64,000 bases of DNA. Origin: Pyropia yezoensis. Its lineage: Eukaryota > Rhodophyta > Bangiophyceae > Bangiales > Bangiaceae. Below, in pieces: positions 6,076 through 61,848 of this stretch (positions within the stretch are counted from its first letter, which is position 1; each line of letters opens with the position of its first letter). The stretch spans positions 4,642,299-4,706,298 of the forward strand of contig CM020620.1 in assembly GCA_009829735.1 (NCBI GenBank), read 5' to 3'. Made by a program: the position numbers and the translations under genes. The notes beneath the pieces were generated by a model, which was not told the origin of the DNA, made no database searches, and saw only the letters and a program-made list of their open reading frames with translations.

Positions 6076-8523
6076 ATGTCCTATCCCCAGGTGCTTGAAG
6101 AGGAGGAAGACCTCCTGATCGGGGAGGAGATGGAGGACGACGCGCCTGTCGGTCCCGACGCCGCGCGTGACGGGGTGAGCTCGTCTGACGACGACGGGCC
6201 TGCGGTGTCCGTCCGTCTGTCGGCCGGAGGACTGTCGTCCGTGTGCAGCGGCACGACGGTGCCGTCGGCCGGCGGTCAACCCGGCGGTCAACCGCGCGTG
6301 GCGGCTTCTACCCCCTCTCTGCCGGCTGCCCGGATGGAGCCTGGTGCCGGTGCCGGCTCACCGCAGCTACCTCAAGATGGTCCGCCCTGCGGCGGAGGTG
6401 GCGACCCGCAGCCGACTCCGGCTGGTCAAGGTGGTCCGGGTGTCCGGGCGGTGACTCCTCGAGGCGGTCCCGACGTTGACGCGGGTGGTGGTGGCGGTGC
6501 GACACCCGGTGCGGCGGGTCAAGACGGTGCGGGTGCCCGCACGGCCGGGGCTCCGGCTCCGGAGGCTGTCCAAGTGCCTTCCCCTTCCGAGGCGGGGGCT
6601 ACGCCGACGGGTGGTGCCGGCGCCGGTACCATACCTGCGGTGCCGCGGGTGTCGAGCGGTCAAGACGCTCCTTCTCCCATGGCGGTTGACACCGGGAGTT
6701 ACTCCGGGCGGGCGCCCGCCCTTCTTCTTCCTCCTCGGCCTCGTCCATCTCCGACGTCGGCCCCTCTGCCGGTGGTGCGTCCCCCGGCGCCCCCGATTCT
6801 TCCTGGTCCTGCCCGGGTTGCCCCGTTGGGTGGCGGCGTCGCCGTGGCGGCGGGTCAACCCGCCATGTCGGTGTCCGACTTGGTGGCTCGGGTTAGAGGC
6901 CTCACGGTGCAAGAGTCGATGGAGTCCGATGGGCGCATGCGGGTGGACTTCCACCTGGTGCATCCCCGTGGAGAGTCCTCTCGGCGCGTCAAGGTGGACC
7001 CGAGCTGGGAGCGGGAGTTGGTGCGGCTGGTCAACCAGCCGAACGCGGTCCGGGTGGAACACCATTGGATCCTGAGTCAGCCGGACGACCGGCATGCGCA
7101 GCTCTGGCGCACCCGGGTGGGACGGGGTGAGGTCTACCTCGACCCCAACTTCGGGGTCTGCGACCTGATTGCCCCCGCGTTGCCGCGGGAGATTGACTAC
7201 CCGGCTAGTGCTCGGGGGATTGCGGCGGCGGCGGAGCCGGTTGCGTTTGGGGAGACGGTGAGCAGTACCGGTCGGTATCCCGACTTTGACTACTACCCGG
7301 GGGTACCCCCGTATCTGTCGTTGACGGCTCCCTACCCGCCCATGGCGGGGTTGAAGTCGGCGTCGAGTTGGCGACGTAACCATGGTGTCATGGCGGATGC
7401 GTTCCGCACGGATATAACGTGTGCGTTGCAGACCGGTAACGGTCGTGCGCCGGTGTACACTGCCGTGCGCCCGCCGCTATGGCAGGAGGGGTGGGAACCC
7501 GCCCCTGCTTTCCGGTTTGACACCGGCTCCTGTCTTCGCTACTTCGGGAGTGTGTTGGCCTCGCGACCGGTCCACCCGTTGCAGGGTACCTTCACCCTTG
7601 AGGTTACCCTCGGGCAGGCTTCATCCTTCTTGCTGTCCGTCCGCCGGCAGGGTCGTCTGTTTCATCTTCCGACGGGTGTCCGTCGGCACATCGCGCAGTT
7701 GGGCGTGGATCTGATAGCCGCCAAGACCGGGTTGGCCCGGGAGTTCGAAGCCCTGCTGGCTGTTCACGATGCCGTGAACTGGGCTGGGGTGTTGGCCCTT
7801 CCCCCGTACCGGAACCCGCAGGCTGGGGCTTCCCCCTTGCCTCGTCACTCGTTGCGTGTCCGGCGTACTCAGCCGGGTGAGCCCAGTTGCCATGGGTGGG
7901 CATCCACCGAGGCTGTTGCTGACCTGGGTATTCCCATGGTTATCCATGACCCTCTTCAGGTCCTTGCTCCGTGGTTCGGTAACCCGATGCCGGCGGCGGT
8001 TGGCCGTCGTCCCCGAGAGTGGGGCTCTGTGGGTGGGGAGCGTGAGGTGTCCCGTCGTCGGGCGGAGTACCGCCGTGGTTACGGTGGAGCCTCTTCGGTA
8101 GGGTCCTACCGGGCCTCGTATCAGGTGCCACCGGCTCCGGTGGTAGCCGTGTCGGCTCCTGTGGCTCCTCTGGCTGCGTCAGTGTCACCTCCCGCCCCTG
8201 TCCTACATGACGGGGGTCTCCGTCTCTGGTATGAGGGCGTTGACGCCCTTGTTACCCGCGCAATGCGTGGGGGTCTCTCTGTTAGCTGGGGGGATACCCC
8301 CCCAGGTGCTGCGCTGGTTGGGTCAGCGCGTTGCTTCGGTGGCGTGCTGGACCGCCTCCAGAAAGCTCTGGAGGACGTGGAGGCTGGCCGCAGCACCCTC
8401 GTCCAGCTATGCACCGAGGTAACTCGGGTGGTCGACCGTCGTGACATTGCCGACCGGTGGAGCACGGAGGTATACGCGCTTACGCGTGAGTGGCCTCCCT
8501 CGGGCAGTGGGTCTACCCACTGA
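6076..8523 (+). CDS. Antisense gene of family-1 element A (unknown function, 815 aa)
   Basis: A long open frame opposite in direction to gag-pol, between pol and the 3' LTR. I chose the ATG at 6076 because the frame upstream lacks an ATG and the start (MSYPQV) aligns with MADPQV of copy F. The N-terminus is acidic (EEEEDLLIGEEMEDD), followed by about 200 residues rich in Gly, Pro and Ala that look disordered. A folded region begins near residue 290. It contains DYYPGVPPYLSL near 405, RLFHLPTGVRRHIAQLGVDL near 527 and a helix ending AVNW near 570. A C-terminal block from about 714 has LRLWYEGVDAL and STLVQLCTEVTRVV. No signal peptide, membrane segment or known enzyme motif is visible. Similar blocks occur in the antisense genes of B and of C/E. 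I do not recognise its function. Confidence 0.85.
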   Translation: MSYPQVLEEEEDLLIGEEMEDDAPVGPDAARDGVSSSDDDGPAVSVRLSAGGLSSVCSGTTVPSAGGQPGGQPRVAASTPSLPAARMEPGAGAGSPQLPQDGPPCGGGGDPQPTPAGQGGPGVRAVTPRGGPDVDAGGGGGATPGAAGQDGAGARTAGAPAPEAVQVPSPSEAGATPTGGAGAGTIPAVPRVSSGQDAPSPMAVDTGSYSGRAPALLLPPRPRPSPTSAPLPVVRPPAPPILPGPARVAPLGGGVAVAAGQPAMSVSDLVARVRGLTVQESMESDGRMRVDFHLVHPRGESSRRVKVDPSWERELVRLVNQPNAVRVEHHWILSQPDDRHAQLWRTRVGRGEVYLDPNFGVCDLIAPALPREIDYPASARGIAAAAEPVAFGETVSSTGRYPDFDYYPGVPPYLSLTAPYPPMAGLKSASSWRRNHGVMADAFRTDITCALQTGNGRAPVYTAVRPPLWQEGWEPAPAFRFDTGSCLRYFGSVLASRPVHPLQGTFTLEVTLGQASSFLLSVRRQGRLFHLPTGVRRHIAQLGVDLIAAKTGLAREFEALLAVHDAVNWAGVLALPPYRNPQAGASPLPRHSLRVRRTQPGEPSCHGWASTEAVADLGIPMVIHDPLQVLAPWFGNPMPAAVGRRPREWGSVGGEREVSRRRAEYRRGYGGASSVGSYRASYQVPPAPVVAVSAPVAPLAASVSPPAPVLHDGGLRLWYEGVDALVTRAMRGGLSVSWGDTPPGAALVGSARCFGGVLDRLQKALEDVEAGRSTLVQLCTEVTRVVDRRDIADRWSTEVYALTREWPPSGSGSTH

Positions 8524-9002: not shown

Positions 9003-12000
9003 TTACAGTAGGCGTCGTCGCCTCATGTAAGGCATGAGGAGTTGGCGGGGTATGTTTGCCGCCTGTTCCCAGGTGGGTGAGTTGTATCCGACCCACATAA
9101 CCTTGACGTACCAGGGTCCTGGTAGGTCCGGGTCGGTGTGTCCGACCACGCTCTCTACTTGGTATGGAATCCCATCCGGTCCCACCGGGTCATCTGATCG
9201 GTGGGTTGTAAGGGCTTCATGTAGCAACCCAGCCGGTACCGGCTGAGGCTGTTCCGGCTTCGGAGCAGGTGTGACATCATTCATGCTGATGCGTTGAATC
9301 TCCGTATCGGAGTGTAAGATAACAGAGTGGTCATCTCTGTGGAGGATCTGGTACGGTCCCTTGACCGGTTGCATAAGCTTGTTCCCGCGGAACTTCTGGT
9401 GTCTGATATAGACCCAGTCACCTGTTACCAGGGTTGCGTTGCGCACCCGTTGTCGGGCGTCGAAGTTCTTCTTATATCGAAGTTGTGTTCTGTCAAGGGC
9501 ACCCTTGAGCTTAGGAATCATCCACGATAGCTTGGCCAACCAAGCTAGGTGGATGCGTTCGGCGGGTCGGCCCTTCGGTGTATCATACCGAGTGCACCTG
9601 CCGGGTGGCAGCGTCAGGTTACCGACGCCTAGTGGCATGACCCACTCCAGCGGAGCAATGTTTGTGCTCCGATGTGGCCTGGCATTGTATGCCAGGGTGA
9701 GTACGGACAGAAGCCTGTCCCAAGTGTTCGTGTGCTCGGCCACGTAGCACTGTAGCATCTTTACGATGGTGCGGTTGAACCGCTCCACCTGCCCGTTGGA
9801 CTGCGGGTGGTAGTCGGATGCTCGACGTGGTTCGATACCGAACATGCCCAGGACCTTAGTGCAGAATGCCGACGTAAGGTTTGCTCCGTTATCGGAGAGG
9901 AGTTGCTTCATGACTCCGTATGCACTGATCCAGTGGTCAACCACTGCGTTCATGATCGTATATGCCGTATCATTCGGGATGGCTGCCGCTCTTGACAGCT
10001 TAGTGATCGGTCAGACATGACCAGGATGTACCTGTTCCTTCTTCCGTTATCGGAAGTGGCCCGAGTATGTCGATAGCGACTTGTTCGTTGGGCCCATCAG
10101 GTGGGAATAGCTTCATGGCAGACGCCTGCCTATGTAGACTCATGCGGTTACGTGCACAGGGGTGGCATCCCCTTACGTGGTCGACCACGTCGACGGCCAT
10201 TGCTGGCCAGTAGAAGAACCTTCGCATTGCTGCGAACATACGTGAACCCCCGGGTGTCCGGCTGTAGGGTTCTCATGTTCTCGTTCCATGACGGCTTGCC
10301 GTAAGGACACGGGAACCACGACTTGATGTCGTCCATCGGCGGGTGCCCGCCGGTATATGAGTCCGTCTTCGTTCTCGGAGAAGATGCCGGCCGTACCGGC
10401 CAGGAGGTTAGCACGATGACGTCTACAGTCATCGTCGTTGGCCTGTGCCTCGCGGAAGTCCGCGAGGGTCAATGGGCACGCAAGGTGTGCCATGGTATGG
10501 TCAACCATACCCTGGGTAGCATTACCCACCATGCACACCGGTACCACCGGGATGTCCTCGTCCACCGGGCGGGTATCCCCGCTCGGGTGTCGAGTCGAGA
10601 CAACGCGTCTCCGAGGTGGTGGGTTGACCCAGCCTTATACACCGTGCGGTAGTCGTGCTCGGCCATCTTCAGCCTCCATCGGGCTAGCCTCCCATGGCTA
10701 TCGGAATCCTTGTCACCAAGGTTGAGGAGCCATCGTAGGGGTTCGTGGTCGGACCTCACGATGAACCTGGAGCCCTCCAGGTATGGACGGAGCAGTTGCA
10801 CTGCCCATATAACTCCGAGGCATTCACGCTCGGTGGCACTATAGTTCCGCTCAGCCGGGTTGAGTGTCCGGCTTGAAGTACCCTACCNNNNNNNNNNNNN
10901 NNNNNNNNNNNNNNNNNNNNNNNNNNNNNNNNNNNNNNNNNNNNNNNNNNNNNNNNNNNNNNNNNNNNNNNNNNNNNNNNNNNNNNNNNNNNNNNNNNNN
11001 NNNNNNNNNNNNNNNNNNNNNNNNNNNNNNNNNNNNNNNNNNNNNNNNNNNNNNNNNNNNNNNNNNNNNNNNNNNNNNNNNNNNNNNNNNNNNNNNNNNN
11101 NNNNNNNNNNNNNNNNNNNNNNNNNNNNNNNNNNNNNNNNNNNNNNNNNNNNNNNNNNNNNNNNNNNNNNNNNNNNNNNNNNNNNNNNNNNNNNNNNNNN
11201 NNNNNNNNNNNNNNNNNNNNNNNNNNNNNNNNNNNNNNNNNNNNNNNNNNNNNNNNNNNNNNNNNNNNNNNNNNNNNNNNNNNNNNNNNNNNNNNNNNNN
11301 NNNNNNNNNNNNNNNNNNNNNNNNNNNNNNNNNNNNNNNNNNNNNNNNNNNNNNNNNNNNNNNNNNNNNNNNNNNNNNNNNNNNNNNCCACGTAGCACTG
11401 TAGCATCTTTACGATGGTGCGGTTGAACCGCTCCACCTGCCCGTTGGACTGCGGGTGGTAGTCGGATGCCGACGTGGTTCGATACCGAACATGCCCAGGA
11501 CCTTAGTGCAGAATGCCGACGTAAGGTTTGCTCCGTTATCGGAGAGGAGTTGCTTCATGACTCCGTATGCACTGATCCAGTGGTCAACCACTGCGTTCAT
11601 GATCGTGTATGCCGTATCATTCGGGATGGCTGCCGCTCTTGACAGCTTAGTGAATCGGTCAGACATGACCAGGATGTACCTGTTCCCTTCTTCCGTTATC
11701 GGAAGTGGCCCGAGTATGTCGATAGCGACTTGTTCGTTGGGCCCATCAGGTGGGAATAGCTTCATGGCAGACGCCTGCCTATGTAGACTCATGCGGTTAC
11801 GTGCACAGGGGTGGCATCCCCTTACGTGGTCGACCACGTCGACGGCCATTGCTGGCCAGTAGAAGAACCTTCGCATTGCTGCGAACATACGTGAACCCCC
11901 CGGGTGTCCGGCTGTAGGGTTCTCATGTTCTCGTTCCATGACGGCTTGCCGTAAGGACACGGGAACCACGACTTGATGTCGTCCATCGGCGGGTGCCCGC

Positions 12001-14816
12001 CGGTATATGAGTCCGTCTTCGTTCTCGGAGAAGATGCCGGCCGTACCGGCCAGGAGGTTAGCACGATGACGTCTACAGTCATCGTCGTTGGCCTGTGCCT
12101 CGCGGAAGTCCGCGAGGGTCAATGGGCACGCAAGGTGTGCCATGGTATGGTCAACCATACCCTGGGTAGCATTACCCACCATGCACACCGGTACCACCGG
12201 GATGTCCTCGTCCACCGGGCGGGTATCCCCGCTCGGGGTGTCGAGTCGAGACAACGCGTCTCCGAGGTGGTGGGTTGACCCAGCCTTATACACCGTGCGG
12301 TAGTCGTGCTCGGCCATCTTCAGCCTCCATCGGGCTAGCCTCCCATGGCTATCGGAATCCTTGTCACCAAGGTTGAGGAGCCATCGTAGGGGTTCGTGGT
12401 CGGACCTCACGATGAACCTGGAGCCCTCCAGGTATGGACGGAGCAGTTGCACTGCCCATATAACTCCGAGGCATTCACGCTCGGTGGCACTATAGTTCCG
12501 CTCAGCCGGGTTGAGTGTCCGGCTGAAGTACCCTACCGGACGTAGGTCCGGGATAACGTTGTCGGTACCTATCAACGTCTCTCCCTGTAACAGGGTGCAT
12601 CCCACTTGTGTATCACACGCATCGACATCGATGACGAAGGTACCCCGTCTATGCGGTAACGCAAGGACGGGTGGGGCTAGTAGGGCTCGCTTCAGCGACT
12701 CGAATGCCTCCTCTTCGCTAGGCGAAGGGGGTTGGAGTACCTTGGGTAAGGTACTGCTCGTAAGAACCGTTAACGGTTTAGCTATCCGAGCGAAGTCCTT
12801 GACGAACCGTCGGTATACATTGCACATTCCCAGGAAGCTCTTGAGCTGCGTCTGGGTGTTAGGGAACCGGGCATCCCGGAGTGCCCGGGTATTGGCTTCG
12901 AGTACCCCTAGTTTACCAGGGGTTATCTGGTGGCCCAGATACTCGACCGTCCGTTGGAAGAAGGCGCACTTCTTCAGACGCAGGGTTACCCCGGCGTTCC
13001 TCAAGAGGGTGAGTACCTCGTCCACATGTTGCACATGGTCATCCATGCTACGCGAGAAGACGATGACGTCATCGAGGTACACTAGGCAGTTACGCCACTT
13101 CACCCCCGACAGTATGATGTCGATAGCCCGCTGGAAAGTAGCGGGGGCGTTGGACAATCCGAAGGGCATCCTTAGGAACTCGTACACTCCACTGTGACAG
13201 ACGAATGCCGTCTTGGGGATATCCTCGTCCGCCACCGGGATCTGCCAGTATCCGGCATTGCAGTCGATGGTGGTAAACACCGTAGCCTCCCCCAGGGAGT
13301 CGATGCATTCATCCATCCTTGGTAAAGGGTATGAGTCCTTCTTGGTAACCAAGTTGAGGCGTCGATAATCGATGCAAAACCGAGGGGTTTGATCCTTCTT
13401 CGGCACAATAACGACTGGGGCACCCCATTCCGACATCGAAGGTCGGATCACCTTAGCTTCACTCATCCTCTTCACTTCTCCATCAACGATCTCTCGTTGC
13501 ATAGGTCCCGCTCGGTGCGGTTGTGAGCGGGCGGGTCGTGCGCCTGGTACCAGGTCTATACGATGTTGGGTTGCCCCAATGGTCCCCAAGGCCCCGCCTG
13601 TCCACATAACGTCATGCTTTCTTAGCATCCGTCGTACCCCTTCGGCTACCGAAGGGGGAAGGTGGTCGAGGTCAGCCTCGGCCAGTGCCTTCAAGGCCTC
13701 TTGGTCCTTTGGCGGCAGGTCCGCCGGAGCCGCCGATGGGTTAGGCTTCCCGTCATCGGGTTGCTGTCGCTCGGTGGTCTCGGCGACCGCCAGTACTTCA
13801 AGTGGTTCCACTTGACCTTCCTTATCAGGGGTAAGGATATCTCCTTCGTAGAGTTCGGCAATCCCGAGGATAGTTCCCTTCGGGAGGGTGACTGCCTTAC
13901 GGCGATAGTTCGCCATCACTAAGAGGGACGACCCTTCTGATGGGAGGTCTATGAGACCGTTGGCCATGGTCAACCCATGGCGCTTGTACGTCCGCAAGTT
14001 GGACTTGACTCTGCAGATGCCTGGGAGGTCACAGTTAACCGGGAGGACTGTCTCTGACAACGGCTCAAAGCGAGTTCGCTTGGCCAACCGAAGTGTCTTC
14101 GGCTCGACGCTTGCGTACACCTCAGCCACGTTAACGTGGCTTCCTTGTAGCGTCAGGTCCCTGACGATAGCCGTATGTCCTCGCTTCGTCCCGTCGGCTT
14201 CTTGAAGCTCGACGGTCCTCCGGCCTGGCCGGATTGCATCAACGTGAACGTTGATGAAGGTGCACCCCAGTATGCAGGGCACCGATAGCGTTTCACATAC
14301 CAGGAAGTCAACTTCCGTGGTGAGATCCCCGATGGTAACCTGCAGCGACATCGCTGCGGTCGTACGAATGAGTCGACCATTCGCGTCCTTGATGGTGGGT
14401 CCCCGAGTCACTCTGACTCGTGGAAGCCACTTGTCCGGGAGGGTATCCTTCCGGATAAGGTTGGGTCCAGCCCCTGTGTCCAGTACAGGGTAGTACGATC
14501 GTGTCGACTGGGGGTCAACCCCCAGTGTGGCTGATACCTTGAAGTTCTCCAAGGTAAACAACACATGTCCTACACCGATATCCGGTGTAGCTCGGGCATC
14601 CTGAACAGGGCCCTTGTCTGGTTCAACGTGACGGGGCTTCCCGTCCTCTCCTCCCAACCTTGGAGGTTGGTCATCAATCCCCTGACGCCGTGTCGTCGGG
14701 GCCGGAAGGTGTACCCGGGGGTTGATGCGGCGTCGGCTCAACCGCGCTCTCCGTGGGGCTTTCCCCGCGGTACTCCGGGGTGGCTTGCTTGGGTAACCCC
14801 AGCGCCCCCCGGTCAT
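9003..14816 (-). CDS. pol: Family-1 pol, copy A (contains assembly gap)
   Basis: Gypsy polyprotein. Reading right to left: protease with YYPVLDTGAGPNLIRK near 14470; reverse transcriptase with RFCIDYRRLN near 13370 and LVYLDDVIVFS near 13080; RNase H with ERECLGVIWAVQLL and RSDHEPLRWLL at 12350-12660; integrase zinc finger near 11800-11950 and its catalytic core (AIDILGPLP, LLSDNGAN) further left. The C-terminal part at 9003-9953 holds the end of the integrase (HPQSNGQVERFNRT) and a chromodomain (YVKVMWVGYNSPTWE). The stretch 9740-12537 contains a 500-N gap flanked by repeated sequence, so the reading across it is an assembly matter. Pol lies immediately after gag in another frame, as often in this family. 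Confidence 0.88.
9740..10887. repeat. Segment repeated at 11388-12537 (left of gap)
   Basis: About 1.15 kb from the integrase to the RNase H part of copy A's pol. It is nearly identical to 11388-12537 on the other side of the N run. The two copies differ only by a few small changes, far fewer than two family-1 copies normally differ. Best read as two unmerged contig ends rather than a real duplication. Confidence 0.8.
10888..11387. other. Assembly gap (500 N)
   Basis: A run of exactly 500 N, which looks like a placeholder of standard size. Both flanks carry the same 1.15-kb pol sequence in the same orientation, so the true gap may be zero or negative. Any apparent open frame reading through it is meaningless. 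Confidence 0.98.
11388..12537. repeat. Segment repeated at 9740-10887 (right of gap)
   Basis: Second copy of the 1.15-kb pol segment described at 9740-10887. It is continuous with the rest of copy A's pol to its right. Confidence 0.8.
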
Positions 14817-14824
14817 CCTTCCTC

Positions 14825-17008
14825 TTACTCGTTTCCCGCCCTTGGTAGGGTGCTGTCCGCCGGGACATCCGGGAGAGGAGGTGCCCCCTCGACGGCCAGT
14901 ACTCCACCTGGAGCTGGCTGCCTACCCGGTGCGGGTCCGGGTGCAAGGGCGGGATACCCCCCGGTGGATGCCTTGCGTTGCGCCGCTGCCCGTCGAGACT
15001 CCTCGGGGATGAGTGGGCAGGAAGACACCCAGTCCTGGGGATCCCCACACAACATACACCCGGACGTGCCGGTCCCCCCTTGAGTTCGCATCGGGGTAGC
15101 CCCGTAGCTACGGTTGCCTCCCTCGGGCGCCCGAGTGCCTGCTCCCTGGTAGGCCTTGGGTCCTTGGGTCAACCGGAACATGGACTCCCCCAACCGGTTG
15201 GGTCGGCCCGCAATCTGCGGAGGGGCCTCCGTGCGCACCGCCCATGTTGGCAAGGGTTGGTGAGGGTTCCCCGTCACCGGGGAGTACCCCGTAGTCCGCA
15301 CATACGGGACGCGCCGTCCCGTTCCTTCGTTGACCTGGAACTGGGTTCCAGCCGGGGCGATGTACGCTACCGTACCATGTTCATCAATCACCGGCGTCGC
15401 CGTTAGCAACAGGTGGCCCTGTTGGTCGACTAGAGGGTCATCCTCACCAATAGGGGTATGTTCGGTCGCCACCAGTACTGGTGCGGCTTTACGTTCCACC
15501 TTCTCTTGCCTCGGTACCATGGTAAGACTGGGCTTGCCTCCCTCACCCTTGGGCTTCGGGGCCAAGGCACACTCCGGGTGTAGAACCCGGTAGGCGTCCC
15601 CTAGGGACTTGCACATATGCATCAGTCGACTGAAGTTCGTCCGTGCCGTGTTGGCGCCCCGTGCGGATATCCGCACGTAGTTGGGTACTCCTGCGAACAG
15701 GATGGCCCGTAGCTCCCCTTCTCCGAGGAGCTTCCCCAGCTCGTAGTCGAGCTCTTGGATCCGGCGTCCAAACATCTCCTCATCCTCCCAGGACTGGGCG
15801 GTGGCAGTGCGAAGGGCCCGATAGTGGTCCTCGCACTTGTCCTCACTGAGGTAGCTGCTCAGCAGCTCCTTCAATATCCCACGGTAATCCATGGGGGTGG
15901 CCGCGACCCTCATTCCCGGCATCGGGGATGCCTGGCGAAGAATGCCTCGCACCCGTTCATCAACAAAGAACGGGAGGATCTCCAGGGCCAGCCCCTCGTT
16001 AACGAGCGCCTTGTCTGCGGCTGCCTTGAAGCTAGTCAAGAAGCCGATGACTGCCAACGGGCGTCCGTTCGGCCCCCCGAACATAGGGACTCCCTTCATA
16101 AGGGTCTGCATAGGGCGGATCGCCCGATGCGACGTAGTACGCATCGATTCCGATACGGTGGTAGAGCGGTCCTCCAAACGATAACGTTCCGGAGTAAGAA
16201 CCGACCGGAAGACCTCGTTGACGATCTCCGTGTCAGCGTCCTGGATATCCAGTCGCTTAGCCAGTTGATGAGCGAACTCATCGGACTCCATCCGCTTCAG
16301 TAGGCTCGCAGTTACCTGCGCGGTCATAGCTTCCACCACTGAAGATGGTACTTCAGGCGTCGGCACCTCGGGAACCCGAGTTGCCTGGCCTCCTTCGTCG
16401 TGGGGGTACTGCGAGAGGGTACCCCCTCCCCCAATAACCGACTCTCCCCCGGCGTACGTATCCGCCGGGTCGTGTCCGCGGAGTCCGCTTCGGGTGCTCC
16501 GAGCGTATCGCTCCGTGTGACTCCGTTCCAACTCTGCCGACGAGTCGGACCCATACCCCCTTGTGTCCGGGGGTTGTCCAGGAGTAGCAGCCCCGGGATT
16601 GACCCTGGTGGACTCCGAAAGTAGTCCGGCCGGTTCGAACCGTACCGGTGTGGGAGGAACACGACGGGGTCCCGTCGTGTGCCGTGTTGACATCAACACT
16701 GCCATTGCGTCCTCCGTCCGATCTTGACGGGCGTCGAGCCCGGAAAACCGGGCCTCGATGCGGGCCAATGATGCCATCAGGGAATCCCCTGGTGAAGGAG
16801 GCGGCGGAGTGAGGTCGGTCGACGACAGTTGAGGCGGGCCCCCGCCTCCTGCCGTCCGAGCCGTGCCAAACGTCGATCCGGCACCGGAAAGCATTGGCGT
16901 CTCAATGTTATCGATCGGGTTCCCGATCCCGGTTCCCGTAGTCACCTCCGGAGTCGGCCTCGACGCCGATCCGTCATCTTGAACGTTCCCCGTCTCTTGG
17001 GTAGACAT
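14825..17008 (-). CDS. gag: Family-1 gag, copy A (727 aa)
   Basis: Structural polyprotein that would form the particle core. I place the start at the ATG at 17008 (MSTQETGNVQDDGS), because the frame upstream of it lacks a better ATG. The first 230 or so residues are low-complexity, rich in Ser, Thr, Gly and Pro. A helical capsid-like region follows, with MTAQVTASLLKRMESDEFAH and KSLGDAYRVLHPECAL. Near the C-terminus a Cys-rich motif (CMLCGDPQDWVSSC) matches the position of a nucleic-acid-binding zinc knuckle. The stop lies nine bases before the start of pol's open frame. Copies L and F carry related but broken gag. Confidence 0.87.
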   Translation of the reverse strand: MSTQETGNVQDDGSASRPTPEVTTGTGIGNPIDNIETPMLSGAGSTFGTARTAGGGGPPQLSSTDLTPPPPSPGDSLMASLARIEARFSGLDARQDRTEDAMAVLMSTRHTTGPRRVPPTPVRFEPAGLLSESTRVNPGAATPGQPPDTRGYGSDSSAELERSHTERYARSTRSGLRGHDPADTYAGGESVIGGGGTLSQYPHDEGGQATRVPEVPTPEVPSSVVEAMTAQVTASLLKRMESDEFAHQLAKRLDIQDADTEIVNEVFRSVLTPERYRLEDRSTTVSESMRTTSHRAIRPMQTLMKGVPMFGGPNGRPLAVIGFLTSFKAAADKALVNEGLALEILPFFVDERVRGILRQASPMPGMRVAATPMDYRGILKELLSSYLSEDKCEDHYRALRTATAQSWEDEEMFGRRIQELDYELGKLLGEGELRAILFAGVPNYVRISARGANTARTNFSRLMHMCKSLGDAYRVLHPECALAPKPKGEGGKPSLTMVPRQEKVERKAAPVLVATEHTPIGEDDPLVDQQGHLLLTATPVIDEHGTVAYIAPAGTQFQVNEGTGRRVPYVRTTGYSPVTGNPHQPLPTWAVRTEAPPQIAGRPNRLGESMFRLTQGPKAYQGAGTRAPEGGNRSYGATPMRTQGGTGTSGCMLCGDPQDWVSSCPLIPEESRRAAAQRKASTGGYPALAPGPAPGRQPAPGGVLAVEGAPPLPDVPADSTLPRAGNE

Positions 17009-17233
17009 AGTCACAATCAGTCAACCGACGCAACGATCACCACGAATACGAGAGCGAGGGGGTAGATTGGGGAGAGTAACAGTAGGTCACAGTCACAGGT
17101 AAAGGCTCAACACAATCGATCAGGTCGCAACACCACGAGTACAAGAAAAGGACCGGATCCCTATCCGTGTGCCAGGGCCGAAGACGGCGTCACCACAAGG
17201 GTGACGGAAACCCGTCCCCTGCTGCTCCACCAA
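17009..17233 (-). promoter_or_regulatory. Leader and primer-binding site of copy A
   Basis: Untranslated leader between the 5' LTR and gag. Next to the LTR, on the minus strand, it reads TTGGTGGAGCAGCAGG (17218-17233), which begins with the TGG expected to pair with a tRNA CCA end. The same core stands next to the 5' LTRs of B, C and D. Confidence 0.8.
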
Positions 17234-17595
17234 TGTAGCACAATAGGAATCCGTCGCACGTCCACTCTCAGGGAACACTCACCAAGGGGGATCGGCACCG
17301 ACGTCACCGGGAGGCCAAGGTTGCTGTCCTTGGAGCGCAAGCCACGGGACCAAGATGGGAGCCCAAATGGGAGGGGTTTGTTGTTCTACCTTGGCCGGCG
17401 GTGGATTCGCCACCGGCCCCCTCGTTATAAACCCTCGGAGACACTACTAACTACCCTCCACCCCAAGATGCAAGTCCCTCTGGTCATACGTAACTTATAG
17501 ATACCGTGACCAGCTCGGACTCTCAAATTGAAGTTAAGGATTAGAAGTAGCCCCCCTAAGATTAGGGTCACAATACGGACAACCATATTGCTACA
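17234..17595 (-). repeat. 5' LTR of copy A
   Basis: A 362-bp direct repeat of 5156-5517 with the same TGTAGCA/TGCTACA ends. Most differences from the other LTR cluster in the last 80 bases. Confidence 0.93.
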
Positions 17596-18439
17596 TGCTA
17601 CACCGATATCCGGTATGACTCGGGCATCCTGAACAGGGCCCTTGTCTGGTTCCATGTGACGGGGCTTCCCGTCCTCTCCTCCCAACCTTTGTGGTTGGTC
17701 ATCCATCCCCTGACGCCGTTTCGTCGGGGCCGGAAGGTGTACCCGGGGGTTGATGCGGCGTCGCCTCAACCGCGCTCTCCGTGGGGCTTTCCCCGCGGCA
17801 GTCCGGGGTGGCTTGCTAGGGTCACCCCAGCGACCCCGTGTCGTCCTTCCTCTTACTCGTTTCCCGTGCTCGGCCGAGTACTATTTTCCGGGGTATCCGG
17901 GAGAGGAGGTGCCTCCTCGACTGCCAGTACTCCTCCTGGAGCTTGCTGCCTGCCCGGTGCCTGGCCTCTGGCGGGATACCCCCCAACGGATGCCTTGCGT
18001 TGCGCCGCTGCCCGTCGAGACTCCTCCGGGATGAGCGGGCATGAGGACACCCAGTGTTGGGGGTATCCGCACAACAGACACCCGGACGTGCCGGCCGTCC
18101 CGGGCGTCCGCGTCGGGTTGGCTCCATAGTTCCGGCTGCCTGCCTCGGGCGCCCGAGTGCCTGCCCCTTGGTAGGCCTTGGGGGCCGGGGTCAACCGGAA
18201 CATGGAGTCCCCCAGCCGGTTGGTTCTACCAGCGATGTGCGGAGGTGCCTCCGTACGCACTGCCCATGTCGGCAGGGGTTGGTGGGGGTTCCCCGTAACC
18301 GGGGCATACCACGTAGTCCGCACATACGGGAAGCGCCGACCCGCTCCCTCGTTGACCTGGAACTGGGTCCCGGCCGGGGCGATGTACGCTACCGTACCAT
18401 GCTCATCAATTACCGTCGTCGCTGGTAGCAACAGGTGGC
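17596..18439 (-). pseudogene. Copy L: N-terminal end of pol and C-terminal part of gag
   Basis: Resumes copy L after inserted copy A; the sequence matches copy A from about 14571 rightwards. The first 250 bases correspond to the start of pol. From about 17853 the minus strand carries the end of gag, with a zinc knuckle (CLLCGYPQHWVSSC) and the TPAPKAYQGAGTRAPE region. It is cut at 18439 by element B and resumes at 28095. Confidence 0.8.
18435..18439. repeat. Target-site duplication of element B (left)
   Basis: GTGGC, repeated at 28095-28099 immediately after the right LTR. The uninterrupted gag in copy A reads across this point, which confirms the insertion. Confidence 0.85.
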
Positions 18440-19014
18440 CGTGGTATAAAACTCGATCCTCTCAGACACGTGTCAATATCCCCCGGGGGAAAGGGACAGG
18501 TAACACAGAAAGGGGAACTACGAGAATGGTATGCCTGTTGCCTCACGTGCCTGCTCGCAGAGCAAACAGATACGCACGGTAGTGCACACGGGGAAGAGGA
18601 AAGCAAACGCGCAGTTGTCTTTTTCCTGAGGGCGCGGGCCAAGGGCGCCTCGCTGTCCCTCTTAGCGTGCATCTGGGTGAGCCTCGGCACGTTGGCCAGG
18701 TAGCCCCCCCCCCAATACCCCCGAGTGGCCCCGACCCGAGTCTAACCTCGTCAGGTCGGGGGCCACTATCACTACTAATTCTATTCCCACTCACTAATCT
18801 CACACTCCAATTCTCTCAAATCAAGTCCCTCACAAGTATGCAAGAACCCATCAGAAATCCCTCTCTCACGTGTGGATAGCGTAGTCCACCGCATCCCAGT
18901 GCCGGGCACGGGCCACGGCCGCCAACCAACACCACACGGCGGGCGTGTTCTGGCACCTGGTGCCTGCTGGTTGCAGTCCCGGGTCGGCGCCAAGTCGGGG
19001 CCAGGGATGCTACA
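18440..19014 (-). repeat. 3' LTR of element B
   Basis: A 575-bp direct repeat of 27520-28094, ending TGCTACA. On the plus strand a TATAAAA lies at 18444-18450, the strand of the antisense gene that starts at 19198. A C-run of about nine bases lies near 18705-18713. The minus strand next to the LTR (GGGAGGGAGCTA, just right of 19014) is a likely polypurine tract. Confidence 0.93.
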
Positions 19015-20622: not shown

Positions 20623-20640
20623 GCTCGTCCGGCACCGCGC

Positions 20641-25700: not shown

Positions 25701-25711
25701 CGCCGGTCAGC

Positions 25712-29565: not shown

Positions 29566-29569
29566 CCAG

Positions 29570-44334: not shown

Positions 44335-44369
44335 GGATGCGTCGGGGAGACTGCCCGTCGGTCCTCGAC

Positions 44370-46235: not shown

Positions 46236-46318
46236 TCAAGCGATCGTCAACACAACTGCCACAAGGCACCAAGGAACACGTACGAGTGTACGGCAGCGCC
46301 GCGCACGAGCAGTATCCT

Positions 46319-46333
46319 CCGCTGCTCCACCAA
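46319..46333 (-). promoter_or_regulatory. Primer-binding site of element D
   Basis: Next to the 5' LTR the minus strand reads TTGGTGGAGCAGCGG. The first 13 bases equal the primer site of A, B and C. Confidence 0.78.
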
Positions 46334-46741
46334 TGTGGAATATGTGTTACCCAATAAAAGGATATGGGACCGACCGGCGCCCGGAAGGCAAAGAGGGAGC
46401 TATTACCGTAAGGGCAAAGAAGACAGACCTTCAGCTCCAGGACGTTCGATGGGGAGCAAGCCGGCCAAACGGCAGCGGCGAGCCCCCACGTCGCCTATAC
46501 CGGGCGAAACAATTATGCCGGTCGAGCGACCGAGCGAAGGCCGGACGGCCGATCGCCACAAGCATAGCAAACAATATAAAAGATCCCTCCAAAGCAAGGA
46601 CAGATAAAAAATGCAAAACAGAAGTAGTCCCCCAAAGGGCGAGCCACAAGCGGACCCAGACCAACAAGGCTGGGACCAACAGTCAAGGGGGCTACTTGCA
46701 CGTAAATACCGGAAATCGGTACGGTGGGCGGATATGCTACA
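46334..46741 (-). repeat. 5' LTR of element D
   Basis: 408-bp direct repeat of 38458-38865, followed immediately by the duplicated CTTGC at 46742-46746 and the resumed pol of C. Confidence 0.93.
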
Positions 46742-49327: not shown

Positions 49328-50876
49328 ACTCGGCCGTCATAAACTCCGCCACCGACTCGCAACTCGCGGTCGCCACTGCAGTACGAACGCGCTCCTCTAG
49401 TTGAGGAGTCTCGGAACTTTGGAGGGTTGCGGTCGACGCGGCCAACCAGGAAATGGTGCGCACCAACGTGGTGATCATCATCTCTGAGGTTAGAGGCGTG
49501 GGCGGTCACACCAACTTGGGGTATACCGTCAGGAGGGTGGCCCCCAAGTTGGGGGACACCGGAGTGGACGACTCAACGGCCACGCTAATCGGGATGTCCC
49601 CGTGCGGCTGGTAGGGGACAGGAGGAAGCGGAGGGGCACGCCGAGGTGGCGGGACCCGGGTGTGACTGCGACCCCGACTTGGGGCCCCCGCAGTGGGTTG
49701 AGTCATATGGTCATCATGTGAGGGCACGGCCATAACTATGGCCTTGTCCGGGGGTGGTGCAGTGTGGCGATTTACCCCCGGGGCATATGGGTAGTCCCCG
49801 ATGTCCAACCCCTCTCGTAGGACCACACGGCCGTCGTGAAGTTCACGAGCGACCCATACGAACTGGCGAAGTGCGCCATCGTCCTTGGGCCCACGAGTGG
49901 GGCGGCGCAACTTGTGCTCGATGCTCTCCCACTCGATAAACTTGTGGAGGCGGAGCATCTCCTCAAGTAGAGTGAGTTGTCCTGATGAGCACCCCTCAGC
50001 AACTAGCTGAGGGGTGAGCTGTTCCAAACCTTGGATAAGCCGGAGGGGGAGATGCCAGAGCATCCCCCGCCGCTGAACACAAGACACCCAGGTCGACATG
50101 ACCTCGAGGAGCCACTGGGTGGCCAACATGGCCCACACCAGGTGATCAGGGCCAGCCGTCAACATGACGGAGCCGAAGTGGTCAAGCAACCGTGGCAGCA
50201 ACGCAGGGAACCCGTAGGGAACCTCAACTTGAGGCCACCACTCGGGCTTCTTCGGATAGTACTGCTCCTTGGTGGCAGCAGACTGTTGAGGAAACTCAAG
50301 TTGAGCCGAGGTCACCAAGTAGGGACCTTGCCGGACGTCTTTCTCCATCCGTACATCAAAGTGATGAGTGTGCGGATCGGCCTCGTGGAGGTACGGGGGG
50401 CGAGTTGCCACCGCGTCCCAAGTAAAGGTCGGCAAGTCGCCGGGACCCGGGATAGTTCCCCCGCGGTCCACCATGGCCTTGGTCCGCTGTACGTCTTCGA
50501 CCTCCTCGTCGTCCAGGAGGGCAAACTGGTCCGTCCTGAAGCCGGCCGGAAACCCGACCCTACGGGGATACTTCTCCCGTACGCGGTCCCATACCCGACC
50601 CATCGCTGCGCCAAGTCGGCCACAGCGAAGAACAGTCAACCCCTCCTCATATAGAGGCCAAGCGGGGTAAAACCACCGCCCCAAGGCCTCACGCGGGACA
50701 ACTTGTCCCGCCTCCGGGGGAGACCCCGCCGTCAACCCAAAGCCGGGTGACGCGGTAGTCCCATCCCCCGGAGCGATCGCGGAGCCCCCGCCGGAAGTCC
50801 CGGCGGGCGCTGTACCGTAGGAGGTGTCCTCCATACGTTCGTCGAGAGAGTCCGTCTCCACCCCCGGGGTCGCCAT
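49328..50876 (-). pseudogene. Large antisense gene of element C
   Basis: Starts at the ATG at 50876 (MATPGVETDSLDERMEDTSY), the same start as in copy E. It contains an acidic N-terminus, a Gly/Ser/Pro stretch, EQYYPKKPEWWPQVEVPYGF, WLLEVMSTWVSCVQRRGMLW, HLPLRLIQGLEQLTPQLVAE and LHKFIEW, then RELHDGRVVLREGLDIGDYP. Order and spacing match the antisense proteins of families 1 and 2. It is nearly identical to the copy in E. About one break. Confidence 0.78.
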
Positions 50877-52940: not shown

Positions 52941-55900
52941 ATGGCCGATCCCCAGGTAACTCGGGATATTAACGACTTCCTAGTTCAGAAAGAGATGGAG
53001 GACGACGCTGCAGACGCGTCTGCGCCCGCGCCCGTCCAGCGTTACGCGGCGAGCTCGTCGGACGACGGCGAGGAGGACGTTATCGTCCACGTGCCGGCGG
53101 CTAGCCCGTCGGGAGGGCCGTCCTCCTTGTGCAGCGGCACGACGGCTCCGTCGTTGGGCGGTCTTCCACGTGTAGCGGGGCCGCTTCCTTTTCCTCCGGC
53201 TGTGCAGAAGGAGCTGGGTGCCGCCGCCGGCGCGGCACTCCCTTCAAATGGTGCTGCCGGGGGTGGTGGTATTTTGCATGTTGTCGGTGGCGGCCCCCCG
53301 CCGAGTACTGCGGGTCAAGATGGTGCGAATGCCCGCCCGGCCAGTGCCCCGGCAACGGAGGGGTTGAAGTGCCCAACCGTCCTGTGGCCTCACGGTTCGG
53401 CCCTTCCGTCGCGAAGTGTAAGGATTTCCCACCTCATCCCATGCCTCATCGTTAAGGGATAATATTTGGGACATCACCTTACGGATCCTGTCAAACCAAC
53501 TCCTGGCAACATGGATCAATTCCTTGTATTGTCGGGCATGACGCGGTGTACCTTACAGACTCATGATGAGTCAGCCGCTGTCTCACGGTGCCTGCTGGCC
53601 GCACGACAGAGGACATCGACAACGCATCATGGCCAGTCGAAAGGCGCCACCGTCAGCACCCATGACGAGCCAGATCTGCCACAGCTGGCGAGTCCGTTAG
53701 AATGTCCTCGCTGCAGCATTGCAGCGCTGTGACTGGCTAGCCGGCTGGCAGATTCGATCGACTCGATCGAACCGTGCTTACACGCCTCTCGGACCTTCGG
53801 ACCGCCTGGCGTCTGGAGCCGGCTGGGACGGCGCACTGGGCGCTGCACGCTAGACCCCTTCGTTTGGGGCAAGCTGGGGCTGCACTCCTTTAGGGCGCAC
53901 GCCCGCCCATGCTTTGTTGTGAGAGCCATGCTTTGTTCTTGGGCCGTTTTGTGCCTACCGGCGGCGCGACGAGGAAACGAATACTTTGGGGCACCTCGGG
54001 TGCCCCGACGCGATTATATAGTGCGTGAGTGCCGGCTCCACCGGGGGAGACCGGAGGGGCAACCACAGACACAGACCAAAGACGACCTTAACCCTTTGAA
54101 CCCCCCTCGATCACCACAGACGTCGCGCCGTCTTCTTCCCCAGACCCACCACCGTCACGATCTCCATCCTCTTCCCCGCACCCTGTCGCCCACTGGCTAA
54201 TACGGGTCGCTGACACCATCACGAGTACGTTGAGGGCTGCCCAAGTGTGGGTGGTTCCTCGCACGGAGGTGACACCGGCAGTTGGGGAGCGACGCGCGGT
54301 GCCGCTGGCGTCGGTTGGTTAAGAAGTGTCTCTTCGCATTGCCGTGGACACCATGAGCTACTACGGACGGGTGCCCGCCCGTCTTCTCCCTCCTCGGCCC
54401 CGTGCGCCTGTGCCAATATAAGTGCCGGTCGGGCTTCCGCCGGCGCCGGCGAATCTTCCCGGGCCAGCTCGGGTTGCCCCGTTGGGTGGCGGCGGAACCG
54501 TTGCGGTGGGGTCCCCTCCTATGTCTGTCTCCGACTTTGTGGCCCGGGCTTCGGGCTTAACCGTCAAGGAGTCCATGGACTCCGCCGGCCGGATGCGGGT
54601 GGACTTCCACCCGCCGAGCTACCGTGAAGGTTCCTCCCGTCTCTTCAAGCTGGACCCGTGTTAGGAACGGGAGTTGGCTCGGCTGGTCGGGCAGCCTGAC
54701 GCGGGACCTGTGGAGCATCATTGGGTGCTGAGTCAGCCGGACGACTGGCATGCCCAACTCTGGCGTGCCCGGGTCGGGCGGGGGGAGGTTGTCCTCAACA
54801 CTTCGTTTGGGATGTGCTACTTGATCGCTCCTGCGCTGCCGAGGGACATCGAGTACCCTTCCGGTGCTCGGGGGGTGGCGGCTGCCACGACCTTCGTGGT
54901 GTTTTGGCAGACCGTGCCCGGTACGAACCGGTGTCCCAGCCTTGAATACTTCCCGGGGATATCCCCCTATCTGTCGTTGACGGCATCCTTCCCGCCCATG
55001 TCTGGGTTGAAGTCGGCGTCGAGTTGGCGGCGCAACCAAGGCATCATGGCGGATGCGTTTCTCACCGATATAACGTGCTCGTTGCAAACAGGTAACAGTC
55101 GTGCGCTTGTGTATACTCTGGTGCTCCGGCTTAAGTGGCAGGAGGGGTGGGAGCCCTCCCCGGATTTCAGGTTTGACACTGGACCATGCCTCAGATATGT
55201 CGGTAGCGTGCTGGCCGCTCGGCCGGTGCATCCGCTACAGGGTGCCTTCACCCTGGAGGTCACCCTTGGTCTGGTCTCTTCCTCCCTGCTGTCTGCTCGT
55301 CGGCAGGGTCGGCTGCTTCATCTTCCGACGGGTGCCCTTCAGCACATCGTGGAGCTTGGCGTTGACGCCATTGCTGCCAAGACGGGGCTGGCCCGTGAGT
55401 TCGAGGCCCTTCTGGCCGTTCACGATGCCGTGAATTGGGCGGAGGTGTTGAGCTTGCCCCCGTTTCGGGATCCGCGGGATGGGGCTCTCCCCCTGCCGCG
55501 TCACTCCCTACACATTCGCCGGGCTCCCCCGGGTGAGGATAGCTACCGTAGGTGGGCATCCACCGAGGCTGTCCCTGACATGGGTATTCCGATGGTCATC
55601 CATGATCCTCTTCCGGTGATGGCCCCGTCGTTCGGTAATCTGACCCCGATGGGAACAGGTGGTATTCCTCGTGAGTGGGACTCAACGTCGGGGACGTGAG
55701 GCGTCCCGCTGACGCGGGGCGTCCCGCCTGGTCTCCGGTAGGACCGCTTCTATGGGGCTTATCCCTTCTCCACGGTCGTACCGTGCCCCGTATTCGGAGC
55801 CATCGGCTCCGGTTGTGGCTGTGGCGGCTCCTGCGGTAACGATGTCGGCCCGTCCGGCTGCGCATGTGGCTTCATATGCCTCCACCATGCCCGTCGGAGA

Positions 55901-56226
55901 TCCCCGTCTGTAGTACCAGGGCGTTGACGCCCTTTTTTTCCCGCGAGCTGCGCGAGAGGCGCACGGCTAGCTCGGGGGATATCCCCCCCGGTGCCGCGCT
56001 GGTTGGCACCCTGCGTTGCTTTGGCGGGGTGCTGGATCGCATCCAGCTACCTCTGGAGTCAGTGGAGGCCGGTCGTAGCACTCTAGTGGAGCTCTGCACT
56101 GAAGTTACTCAGGCGGTTGACCGTCTTGAGATTGCCGACCAGTGGAGTGCGGAGGTGTACGCGACGACGCGTGAGTGGCCCCCTTCTGATGGTGGGGATA
56201 TCCCATACAGAGAGTTGTCGTTATGA
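52941..56226 (+). pseudogene. Antisense gene of copy F
   Basis: Begins MADPQVTRDINDFLVQKEME, aligning with the 6076 start in copy A and keeping the EMEDD acidic motif. The middle part (54420-55700) is well conserved with A: MSVSDFVARASGLTVKESMD, LSQPDDWHAQLWRARVGRGE, GRLLHLPTGALQHIVELGVD and a helix ending AVNW. The C-terminal block (GAALVGTLRCFGGVLDRIQL, STLVELCTEVTQAVDRLEIA) is at 55970-56150. About 850 unrelated bases lie within it (53365-54240). Several breaks. Persistence of the folded blocks, while the low-complexity linker has drifted, suggests past selection on the protein. Confidence 0.75.
53365..54240. other. Unexplained segment inside copy F's antisense gene
   Basis: About 850 bases with no counterpart in copy A, where the antisense gene runs straight through. 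Base composition is more even than around it. It holds small palindromes (around 53755-53770) and a TATATA near 54013, but no open frame with recognisable content. The ends show only a weak inverted resemblance (GGGGTTGAAG against CTTTGAACCCC). It may be a small non-autonomous insertion of unknown class. Confidence 0.4.
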
Positions 56227-60297: not shown

Positions 60298-61848
60298 ATG
60301 GCGACCCCGGGAGTGGAGACGGACTCTCTAGATGAGCGTATGGAGGACACCACCTACGGTGCAGCACCCGCCGGGACTTCCGGCGGGGGCTCCGCGATCG
60401 CTCCGGGGGATGGGACTCCCGCGTCACCCGGCTTTGGGTTGACGGCGGGGTCTCCCCCGGAGGCGGGACAAGTTGTCCCGCGTGAGGCCTTGGGGCCGTG
60501 GTTTTACCCCGCTTGGCCTCTCTATGAGGAGGGGTTGACTGTTCTTCGCTGTGGCCGACTTGGCGCAGCGATGGGTCGGGTATGGGACCGCCTACGGGAG
60601 AAGTATCCCCGTAGGGTCGGGTTCCCTGCCGGCTTCAGGACGGACCAGTTTGCCTTCCTGGGTGACGAGGAGGTCGAAGACGTACAGCGGACCAAGGCCA
60701 TGGTGGACCGCGGGGGAACTATCCCGGGTCCCGGCGACTTGCCGACCTTTACTTGGGACGCGGTGGCAACTCGCCCCCCGTACCTCCACGAGGCCGTTCC
60801 GCACACTCATCACTTTGATGTACGGATGGAGAAAGACTTCCGGCGAGGTCCCTACTTGGTGACCTCGGCTCAACTTGAGTTTCCTCAACAGTCTGCTGCC
60901 ACCAAGGAGCAGTACTATCCGAAGAAGCCCGAGTGGTGGCCTCAAGTTGAGGTTCCCTACGGGTTCCCGTTGTTGCTGCCACGGTTGCTTGACCACTTCG
61001 GCTCCGTCATGTTGACGGCTGGCCCTGATCACCTGGTGTGGGCCATGTTGGCCACCCAGTAGCTCCTCGAGGTCATGTCGACCTGGGTGTCTTGTGTTCA
61101 GCGGCGGGGGATGCTCTGGCATCTCCCCCTCCGGCTTATCCAAGGTTTGGAACAGCTCACCCCTCAGCTAGTTGCTGAGGGGTGCTCATCAGGACAACTC
61201 ACTCTACTTGAGGAGATGCTCCGCCTCCACAAGTTTATCGAGTGGGAGAGCATCGAGCACAAGTTGCGCCGCCCCACTCGTGGGCCCAAGGACGATGGCG
61301 CACTTCGCCAGTTCGTATGGGTCGCTCGTGAACTTCACGACGGCCGTGTGGTCCTACGAGAGGGGTTGGACATCGGGGACTACCCATATGCCCCGGGGGT
61401 AAATCGCCACACTGCACCACCCCCGGACAAGGCCATAGTTATGGCCGTGCCCTCACATGATGACCATATGACTCAACCCACTGCGGGGGCCCCAAGTCGG
61501 GGTCGCAGTCACACACGGGTCCCGCCACCTCGGCGTGCCCCTCCGCTTCCTCCTGTCCCCTACCTGCCGCACGGGGACATCCCGATCAGCGTGGCCGTTG
61601 AGTCGTCCACTCCGGTGTCCCCCAACTTGGGGGCCACCCTCCTGACGGTATACCCCAAGTTGGTGTTACCGCCCACGCCTCTAACCTCAGAGATGATGAT
61701 CACCACGTTGGTGCGCACCATTTCCTGGTTGGCCGCGTCGACCGCAACCCTCCAAAGTTCCGAGACTCCTCAACTAGAGGAGCGCGTTCGTACTGCAGTG
61801 GCGACCGCGAGTTGCGAGTCGGTGGCGGAGTTTATGACGGCCGAGTAG
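60298..61848 (+). pseudogene. Large antisense gene of copy E
   Basis: Starts at the first in-frame ATG (MATPGVETDSLDERMEDTTY). Landmarks: acidic LDERMEDT; Gly/Ala/Ser-rich 20-60; PAWPLYEEGLTVLRCGRLGA; EQYYPKKPEWWPQVEVPYGF near residue 205; RRGMLWHLPLRLIQGLEQL near 270; LHKFIEWESIEHKLRRP near 310; a Pro/Arg-rich linker; then a C-terminal block with NLGATLLTVYPKLV and LEERVRTAVATASCESVAEF. It is longer at its C-terminus than the copy in C. About one break. No known fold recognised; no signal peptide. Confidence 0.8.

What the first reader, a model, noticed from the sequence alone, without database searches (positions are those of the whole stretch)
6076..61848. A conserved antisense gene shared by three different gypsy families
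Seen: in families 1 (A, L, F), 2 (B) and 3 (C, E) a long gene lies between pol and the 3' LTR on the opposite strand. Although pol and gag differ strongly between families, these antisense proteins appear to share landmarks in the same order. First comes YYP followed by a Pro-rich turn (A near residue 405, B near 250, E near 205). Then comes a (T/L/H)(L/E)EV anchor. Next is an aromatic-HLP or FLP motif (RLFHLP, RFWFLP, MLWHLP), and last a long helix ending in a W or R-rich end (HDAVNW, IDFRRRL, HKFIEW). Known: extra antisense genes occur in some plant Tat-lineage gypsy elements such as Grande. Inference: one ancestral antisense gene, kept through family divergence, with an unknown role in the element's life cycle.
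Basis: partly seen in the sequence, partly recalled or inferred. Interest (0 to 1): 0.88.

Follow-up and report, generated by a model that had tools for sequence, protein, structure and literature searches.

The report
Conserved antisense gene in seaweed retrotransposons
Three different families of jumping genes in a nori-type red seaweed carry, written backwards near one end, versions of the same protein gene that natural selection has kept working, although what the protein does is not known.

Summary
The observation largely holds. Three Ty3/gypsy families in the window carry a long ORF on the opposite strand between pol and the 3' LTR: family 1 (copies A, L, F), family 2 (B), family 3 (C, E). 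A-C and C-B homology is significant by BLAST, profile search and shuffled controls; A-B is not significant directly and is joined only through C. The genes evolve as proteins: dN/dS is 0.26 between A and F (neutral simulations: median 0.82), 0.06-0.24 among family-2 copies and 0.08-0.28 among family-3 copies. The own genome is held and matches Pyropia yezoensis in scaffold sizes. Of the best-scoring copies, 52 of 55 (family 1), 110 of 115 (family 2, core only) and 74 of 76 (family 3) have no internal stop. A fourth family (D) lacks the gene.

Genes of this type are known in plants (Grande, Retand) and HTLV-1 (HBZ). This protein family matched nothing credible in Pfam (including the Retand domain), NCBIfam or PDB sequences, and I found no report of it in red algae. 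Function is inferred: probably a soluble accessory or regulatory protein, possibly nuclear. Structure prediction failed (pLDDT 33, 46).

The parts
6076..8523 (+). Antisense gene A, family 1, intact, 815 aa from ATG 6076: acidic and Pro-rich N-terminus, conserved core (about residues 280-590 counted from 6046), Pro-rich linker, C-terminal domain
5155..5518 (-). 3' LTR of element A (the element itself runs on the minus strand)
   Evidence: 97% identical to 17233-17596
17233..17596 (-). 5' LTR of element A, with a primer-binding site TGGTGGAGC... next to it
9003..14816 (-). pol of element A (RT, RNase H, integrase), in three ORFs; crossed by an N gap at 10888-11387 whose flanks repeat the same 1.15 kb
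14825..17014 (-). gag of element A, homologous to the gag of the other families
1..774 (+). Antisense gene L, C-terminal fragment of an older family-1 copy, one stop
54422..56223 (+). Antisense gene F, broken into pieces, in a divergent family-1 copy; longest open piece 54674-55699
19198..21315 (+). Antisense gene B, family 2; one in-frame stop at 20620-20622, open frame resumes in the same frame
18441..19014 (-). 3' LTR of element B (5' LTR 27521-28094, 99.5% identical)
22237..27310 (-). pol (22237-25035, two ORFs) and gag (26105-27310) of element B
49506..50876 (-). Antisense gene C, family 3, interrupted near 49506; element C runs on the plus strand with LTRs at 33440-33908 and 51214-51683
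60298..61848 (+). Antisense gene E, second family-3 copy; stops at 61060-61062 and 61846-61848, similarity to P0006 resumes beyond; element on the minus strand
38458..46741 (-). Element D, a fourth gypsy family with chromodomain, nested in element C; 408-bp LTRs; no antisense gene in its 1.1-kb pol-3'LTR region

Best explanation
The ORFs are one accessory protein gene, carried antisense between pol and the 3' LTR by three related Ty3/gypsy families of a bangialean red alga (most likely Pyropia yezoensis). It was probably present in their common ancestor and has been kept by selection on the protein. Shown: location and strand, homology A-C and C-B, purifying selection in all three families, many uninterrupted copies, absence from family D. 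Inferred: the gene has its own transcript, read from the 3' LTR side towards the end of pol, from a promoter in the 3' LTR or in the short leader. Its product is a soluble protein with a mostly helical core between Pro-rich flexible tails, and it acts as an element-encoded accessory or regulatory factor, probably in the nucleus, tuning expression, nuclear import or integration in the manner proposed for Grande GENE23 and Retand or known for HTLV HBZ. I put that functional step at about 0.45 on its own.
For: Homology. Position next to the 3' LTR in all three families. Selection: A-F core dN/dS 0.259 over 344 codons, lowest of 300 neutral simulations 0.56; the 3' (integrase) end of pol of the same pair is 0.28 and gag 0.34. 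B against four genome copies 0.13-0.24; the six pairs among those four 0.06-0.17; three pairs of family-3 copies 0.08-0.28; window C against those three 0.10-0.27. Variants shared by two or more of 29 family-1 copies give 0.28 per site. Third positions of the antisense frame carry the largest share of differences: 123 of 249 in A-F, 29-57 of 50-82 in B against four copies. No internal stop: 52 of 55, 110 of 115 (core), 74 of 76, and with F as query 111 of 118. Relatives in P. vietnamensis, 61% identical to A over 345 residues for P0003. No 19-residue stretch above 1.54 on the Kyte-Doolittle scale in A, P0003, P0006 or P0007. Basic Arg/Ser-rich tail in three fetched family-3 copies, an NLS-like feature by eye only. 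Antisense precedents, including a nuclear protein from its own promoter in Grande: PMC7264820.
Against: No expression, localisation or functional data. No usable structure (pLDDT 33.2 and 46.0); 'mostly helical' rests on those weak models. A-B is not significant directly. The C-terminal domains are not demonstrably shared between families. In this window only A is intact. Pairs of decayed copies give values inside or near the neutral range: A-L 0.59 (2.5% limit 0.53), C-E first part 0.43 (limit 0.39). Genome copies were picked by protein score, which favours low dN. No promoter or splice pair shared by the families was found. The pol-tree support for one ancestor is moderate (71%).
Confidence: 0.68

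Rival explanations
1. The gene is shared because it spread between families by recombination (for example template switching between co-packaged RNAs), not because their common ancestor had it.
For: The 3' antisense part of copy L is much closer to A than its pol is (dS 0.11 against 0.31-0.41), so this end can be exchanged within family 1. Pol trees do not exclude placements of D that would need loss or transfer, and the integrase part alone pairs A with C at 62%.
Against: Between families the antisense cores are about as diverged as gag (26-28% against 26-31% in forced pairwise alignments), so any transfer would have to be about as old as the families. The joint pol tree groups A, B and C without D (71%).
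Confidence: 0.2
2. The protein is a structural partner (particle component or second capsid-like protein) rather than a regulator.
For: Disordered Pro-rich N-terminus plus a probably helical core resembles Gag layout; between-family divergence like gag.
Against: No similarity between any of four gag cores and three antisense cores (12 comparisons, z from -1.6 to -0.1). No zinc-knuckle or other credible Pfam match. A sense-strand gag is present in each of the four families.
Confidence: 0.12
3. The antisense RNA matters (dsRNA or interference with the sense transcript) and the protein is incidental.
For: Antisense non-coding transcripts with such roles are discussed in PMC7264820.
Against: Selection acts on amino acids in all three families and homology is seen at protein level between families.
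Confidence: 0.03
4. The long ORFs are by-products of G+C-rich sequence.
For: G+C is 63-68% in the genes, and mirror ORFs exist, for example 6367-7383 on the minus strand.
Against: Cross-family homology above 1188 decoys. Only 2 of 300 neutral simulations of A-F kept an open frame. dN/dS 0.06-0.28 in intact copies.
Confidence: 0.01

Closest known systems
Antisense additional ORFs (aORF-3R) of plant gypsy elements: Grande GENE23, RIRE2, Retand ORF4, PvRetro13 (PMC7264820, PMC11963269)
   Same: Same place (between pol and 3' LTR), same orientation, conserved about as well as other element proteins; the pol-3'LTR region of A and B is about 3.5 and 3.2 kb, inside the 2.9-6.6 kb reported for Retand
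   Different: No Pfam match to the Retand TRP28 domain (PF04195) or to SMC; host is a red alga, not a flowering plant
HBZ of HTLV-1 (from recall and from passages in PMC7264820 and PMC11963269)
   Same: Antisense accessory gene at the 3' end of an LTR element
   Different: No bZIP or other credible Pfam match; antisense promoter and splicing not shown
Boty antisense ORF of the fungus Botrytis (named in PMC7264820; sequence not compared)
   Same: Antisense ORF between pol and 3' LTR outside plants
   Different: Relationship not tested
Env-like sense ORFs of plant elements (PMC7264820)
   Same: Third gene between pol and 3' LTR
   Different: Opposite strand; no membrane-spanning stretch in the four proteins tested

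Membership tests
aORF-3R (antisense extra ORF between pol and 3' LTR) | Lies between pol and the 3' LTR, opposite strand | tested here: met
   A, B, C, E, F placed; L has no 3' LTR in the window
aORF-3R (antisense extra ORF between pol and 3' LTR) | Present in most copies of the family | tested here: inconclusive
   52 of 55, 74 of 76, 110 of 115 scored copies without stops, but only best-scoring copies are scored; copies lacking the gene were not counted
aORF-3R (antisense extra ORF between pol and 3' LTR) | Conserved like other element proteins | tested here: met
   (A-F: antisense 0.26, pol end 0.28, gag 0.34)
aORF-3R (antisense extra ORF between pol and 3' LTR) | Transcribed from its own promoter (shown for Grande) | not testable with these tools
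   no RNA data; a few promoter words searched in three leaders and LTRs gave nothing shared
Retand antisense protein | TRP28 domain PF04195 | tested here: not met
   no PF04195 match in the 12 members of A4 up to E 10, within HMMER's filters (profile-profile comparison with TRP28 could not be made)
HBZ | bZIP domain | tested here: not met
   no Pfam bZIP match
Env-like protein | Transmembrane segment | tested here: not met
   maximum Kyte-Doolittle mean over 19 residues 1.23-1.54 in four proteins
Ty3/gypsy (Metaviridae) | gag, then protease-RT-RNase H-integrase, between LTRs | tested here: met
   (D matches Ty3 Gag-Pol at E 1.1e-113)

The most novel reading that the evidence does not exclude
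Bangialean gypsy elements are true ambisense elements. Their antisense gene is a third core gene, of a protein family unrelated to the plant TRP28 or viral HBZ proteins, gained once before at least three families split and required for their spread, so that antisense third genes arose independently in red algae, flowering plants, fungi and retroviruses.
Probability: 0.4. Interest if true: 0.75.

Novelty: new variant of a known kind. Interest (0 to 1): 0.62.

Why it matters
What antisense third genes of LTR elements do is unknown in plants (PMC7264820). Here a conserved family in a cultivated seaweed with a published genome has many near-identical recent copies, a related family without the gene as a natural comparison, and measurable selection on the protein. 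That makes the question of what such genes are for more directly testable, and it suggests that the arrangement may have arisen more than once.

Tried and rejected
Structure: AlphaFold2 on the A core (381 aa, 12 sequences) gave pLDDT 33.2 and pTM 0.26; on a 196-aa piece of C (11 sequences), pLDDT 46.0 and pTM 0.37. Both look mainly helical, but the confidence is too low, so I ran no fold search.

Known domains: no credible match in Pfam (the only row among the 12 members was DUF6214 in one member, E 0.014), NCBIfam (A, P0003, P0006, P0007) or PDB sequences (profile of family 1 and P0006, best E 0.4 and 0.75; family 2 was not searched there).

Relatives elsewhere: three protein searches gave 5, 1 and 1 hits, each scoring only the 8000 candidates with most shared words. 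Viral contigs with three queries and genome contigs with two gave none.

Antisense splice acceptor at the polypurine tract: a pyrimidine tract ending in YAG lies just inside the 3' LTR in A, B, C and E but not D. The GTAAG donor-like site in A's 3' LTR is absent from the other 29 of 30 family-1 copies, though F has a similar one. Weak donor-like strings recur within family 2 (one in 3 of 4 LTRs, two in 4 of 4) and family 3 (one in 3 of 3), but none is shared by the families. I treat this as unsupported, not excluded.

Shared C-terminal domain: A-B z 2.2, P0001-B 2.9, P0003-B -0.2, P0004-B 0.3, three comparisons with C from -0.9 to -0.2; not significant. Antisense protein as a gag relative: no support. 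Hairpin beside the PPT: one of four stretches had z below -3; not pursued.

One search, row 'C vs E part2', and one search used a wrong frame and wrong strands. They are replaced.
Full report
SETTING. The window is a nest of LTR retrotransposons. Its own genome is held (107,475,971 bases, 11 contigs; window = C3:4642299-4706298). The three contigs seen are 43.59, 34.33 and 29.39 Mb. These match the scaffolds of 43.6, 34.3 and 29.4 Mb reported for Pyropia yezoensis (PMC7423979, passages seen), so the host is most likely that nori species; this is an inference. Named protein relatives are from Pyropia vietnamensis, order Bangiales.

ELEMENTS. Self-comparison and LTR ends give four gypsy families. 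Family 1: element A (LTRs 5155-5518 and 17233-17596, 97%), inserted in an older copy L, and a decayed copy F (52214 to about 59401). Family 2: element B (LTRs 18441-19014 and 27521-28094, 99.5%). Family 3: element C (LTRs 33440-33908 and 51214-51683, plus strand) and a second copy E. Family 4: element D (38458-46741, 408-bp LTRs), nested in C. Beside the 5' LTR of A, B, C and D a primer-binding site beginning TGGTGGA is visible (read by eye). Sense-strand gag proteins of the four families are homologous: the six pairs give z 11.5-41.2, 0 of 500 shuffles as good.

THE ANTISENSE GENE. In families 1-3 a long ORF lies between the end of pol and the 3' LTR on the other strand. A is intact: 815 residues from the ATG at 6076. 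The window copies of B, C and E have stops or frame breaks. Uninterrupted relatives exist: P0006 (576 aa) equals a copy in this genome, and P0007 (583 aa) spans B's break.

HOMOLOGY. Two-sequence BLASTP gives 48.1 bits, E 8e-10, for A against P0006 and 43.9 bits, E 1e-8, for P0006 against P0007. A against P0007 gives nothing significant. With a database of 594 real sequences and 1188 reversed or shuffled decoys, the profile of family 1 finds family 3 (E 1.6e-5) but not family 2. The profile of family 3 finds family 2 (2.8e-6) and family 1 (7.6e-5). The profile of family 2 finds family 3 (0.0015) but not family 1. A family 1+3 profile finds family 2 (3.7e-4), and a family 2+3 profile finds family 1 (5e-4). 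The best decoy over all six profiles is at E 0.63, the best unrelated real ORF at 0.58. Profile-profile comparison gives 80.6% (A-C), 29.9% (C-B) and 0.9% (A-B). Pairwise z for the cores: A-C 16.3, P0003-C 12.4, F-C 9.7, C-B 12.6, A-B 3.0 (6 of 500 shuffles as good), P0003-B 0.7, F-B 0.9. So homology of all three rests on C as the link. In the alignment the shared features are a PPYL/PPFL segment, YYP in B and C only, a GSV/DA-L segment, the L(F/W)(H/F)LP motif, and the helix ending in VHD/LHK.

SELECTION. A against F, 344 codons: dN/dS 0.259, differences at codon positions 71/55/123. Of 300 neutral simulations (median 0.82) the lowest value was 0.56, and 2 kept an open frame. The integrase end of pol of the same two copies gives 0.28 and gag 0.34 (five columns with stops left out). 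A against L in the C-terminal part: 0.59, dS 0.11, inside the neutral range (2.5% limit 0.53). C against E: first part 0.43 (21 changes; limit 0.39), second part only 3 changes. For comparison the pol pieces give 0.10 and 0.12 for A-L and 0.59 for C-E. Genome copies: B against four copies 0.13-0.24; six pairs among those four 0.06-0.17; three pairs of family-3 copies 0.08-0.28; window C against those three 0.10-0.27. In 29 of 30 fetched family-1 copies (L022 dropped because its match begins at residue 2), variants seen in two or more copies are 17 replacement to 23 silent (0.28 per site). Singletons are 98 to 84 (0.44), with 2 stops. These copies were chosen by protein score, which biases towards low dN. 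For family 2 the bias is small, since all 114 listed copies other than the window's own lie at 92-94% identity.

COPIES. Scored copies without internal stops: family 1, 52 of 55; family 3, 74 of 76, of which 46 have the same score, a sign of a recent burst; family 2 core (352 aa), 110 of 115. Only the best candidates are scored, so these are neither totals nor unbiased fractions. Using F as query gave no close relative: the other 117 of 118 rows lie at 71-73% identity, and 111 of the 118 have no stop.

FAMILY WITHOUT THE GENE. D has about 1.1 kb between pol and its 3' LTR. The joint profile of the three families finds nothing there. Seven further genome copies align to D from the LTR edge or within 8 bases of it to position 1243 of the 1335-base query without a gene-sized insertion (40 of 142 candidates scored). 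The joint pol tree is D outside A+(B,C), 71% and 75% support; the RT/RNase H part alone gives 62% and 67%, and the integrase part alone puts A with C (62%) and D outside (68%). The two other placements of D tested are not rejected (AU 0.16, 0.23). With single RT pieces, B and C group at 89% and the position of D is unresolved at 53%.

NATURE OF THE PROTEIN. No credible domain was found in Pfam, NCBIfam or PDB sequences (what was searched is listed under Tried and rejected). There is no membrane segment in four proteins tested. Composition is Pro-rich (10.9-12.1%), with an acidic start in A (-13 in the first 60 residues). The tail of three family-3 copies is Arg/Ser-rich and would suit a nuclear signal (by eye). 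Structure models are not usable. Between families the antisense core is 26-28% identical and the gag core 26-31%, in forced pairwise alignments.

LITERATURE. Read: PMC7264820, parts 1 and 2 of 3, and PMC11963269, passages and the discussion. They describe antisense extra ORFs between pol and the 3' LTR in flowering plants and a fungus, a nuclear protein from its own promoter in Grande, and a TRP28 domain in Retand with a proposed regulatory role. Searches that listed no report of such a gene in red algae: (open-licence PMC papers only; listings read, not the papers, apart from the passages named above).

JUDGEMENT. A conserved antisense protein gene shared by three gypsy families is well supported. 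Descent from one ancestor is likely but not proven. A regulatory, possibly nuclear, accessory role is the best guess by analogy.

Noticed in passing
window 10888-11387: A run of 500 N with 1.15 kb repeated on both sides at 99.4% (9740-10887 and 11388-12537), which looks like an assembly artefact splitting one pol.
   Followed up: partly
window 1-5155 against 7744-14574: Copy L is a mosaic relative to A: antisense part dS 0.11, integrase end 0.31, RT part 0.41, and the stretch between the convergent genes only 74% identical, suggesting recombination between subfamilies.
   Followed up: partly
window 5519-5530, 19015-19029, 51199-51213, 59960-59975: The complement of the polypurine tract ends in YAG in A, B, C and E, like a splice acceptor for the antisense strand, and not in D; no donor shared by the families was found.
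   Followed up: partly
window 48503-49082 and 57560-58133: Two apparent solo LTRs of family 2 inserted in elements C and F.
   Followed up: no
window 29511-33440: ORFs at 31003-31662, 32364-32993 and 32615-33763 (minus) have no Pfam match and were not assigned to an element.
   Followed up: no
window 39583-39820: Short tandem repeat (72-base spacing) between pol and the 3' LTR of element D.
   Followed up: no
G000, family-3 copies: 46 of 76 scored family-3 copies have the same score, pointing to a very recent amplification.
   Followed up: no
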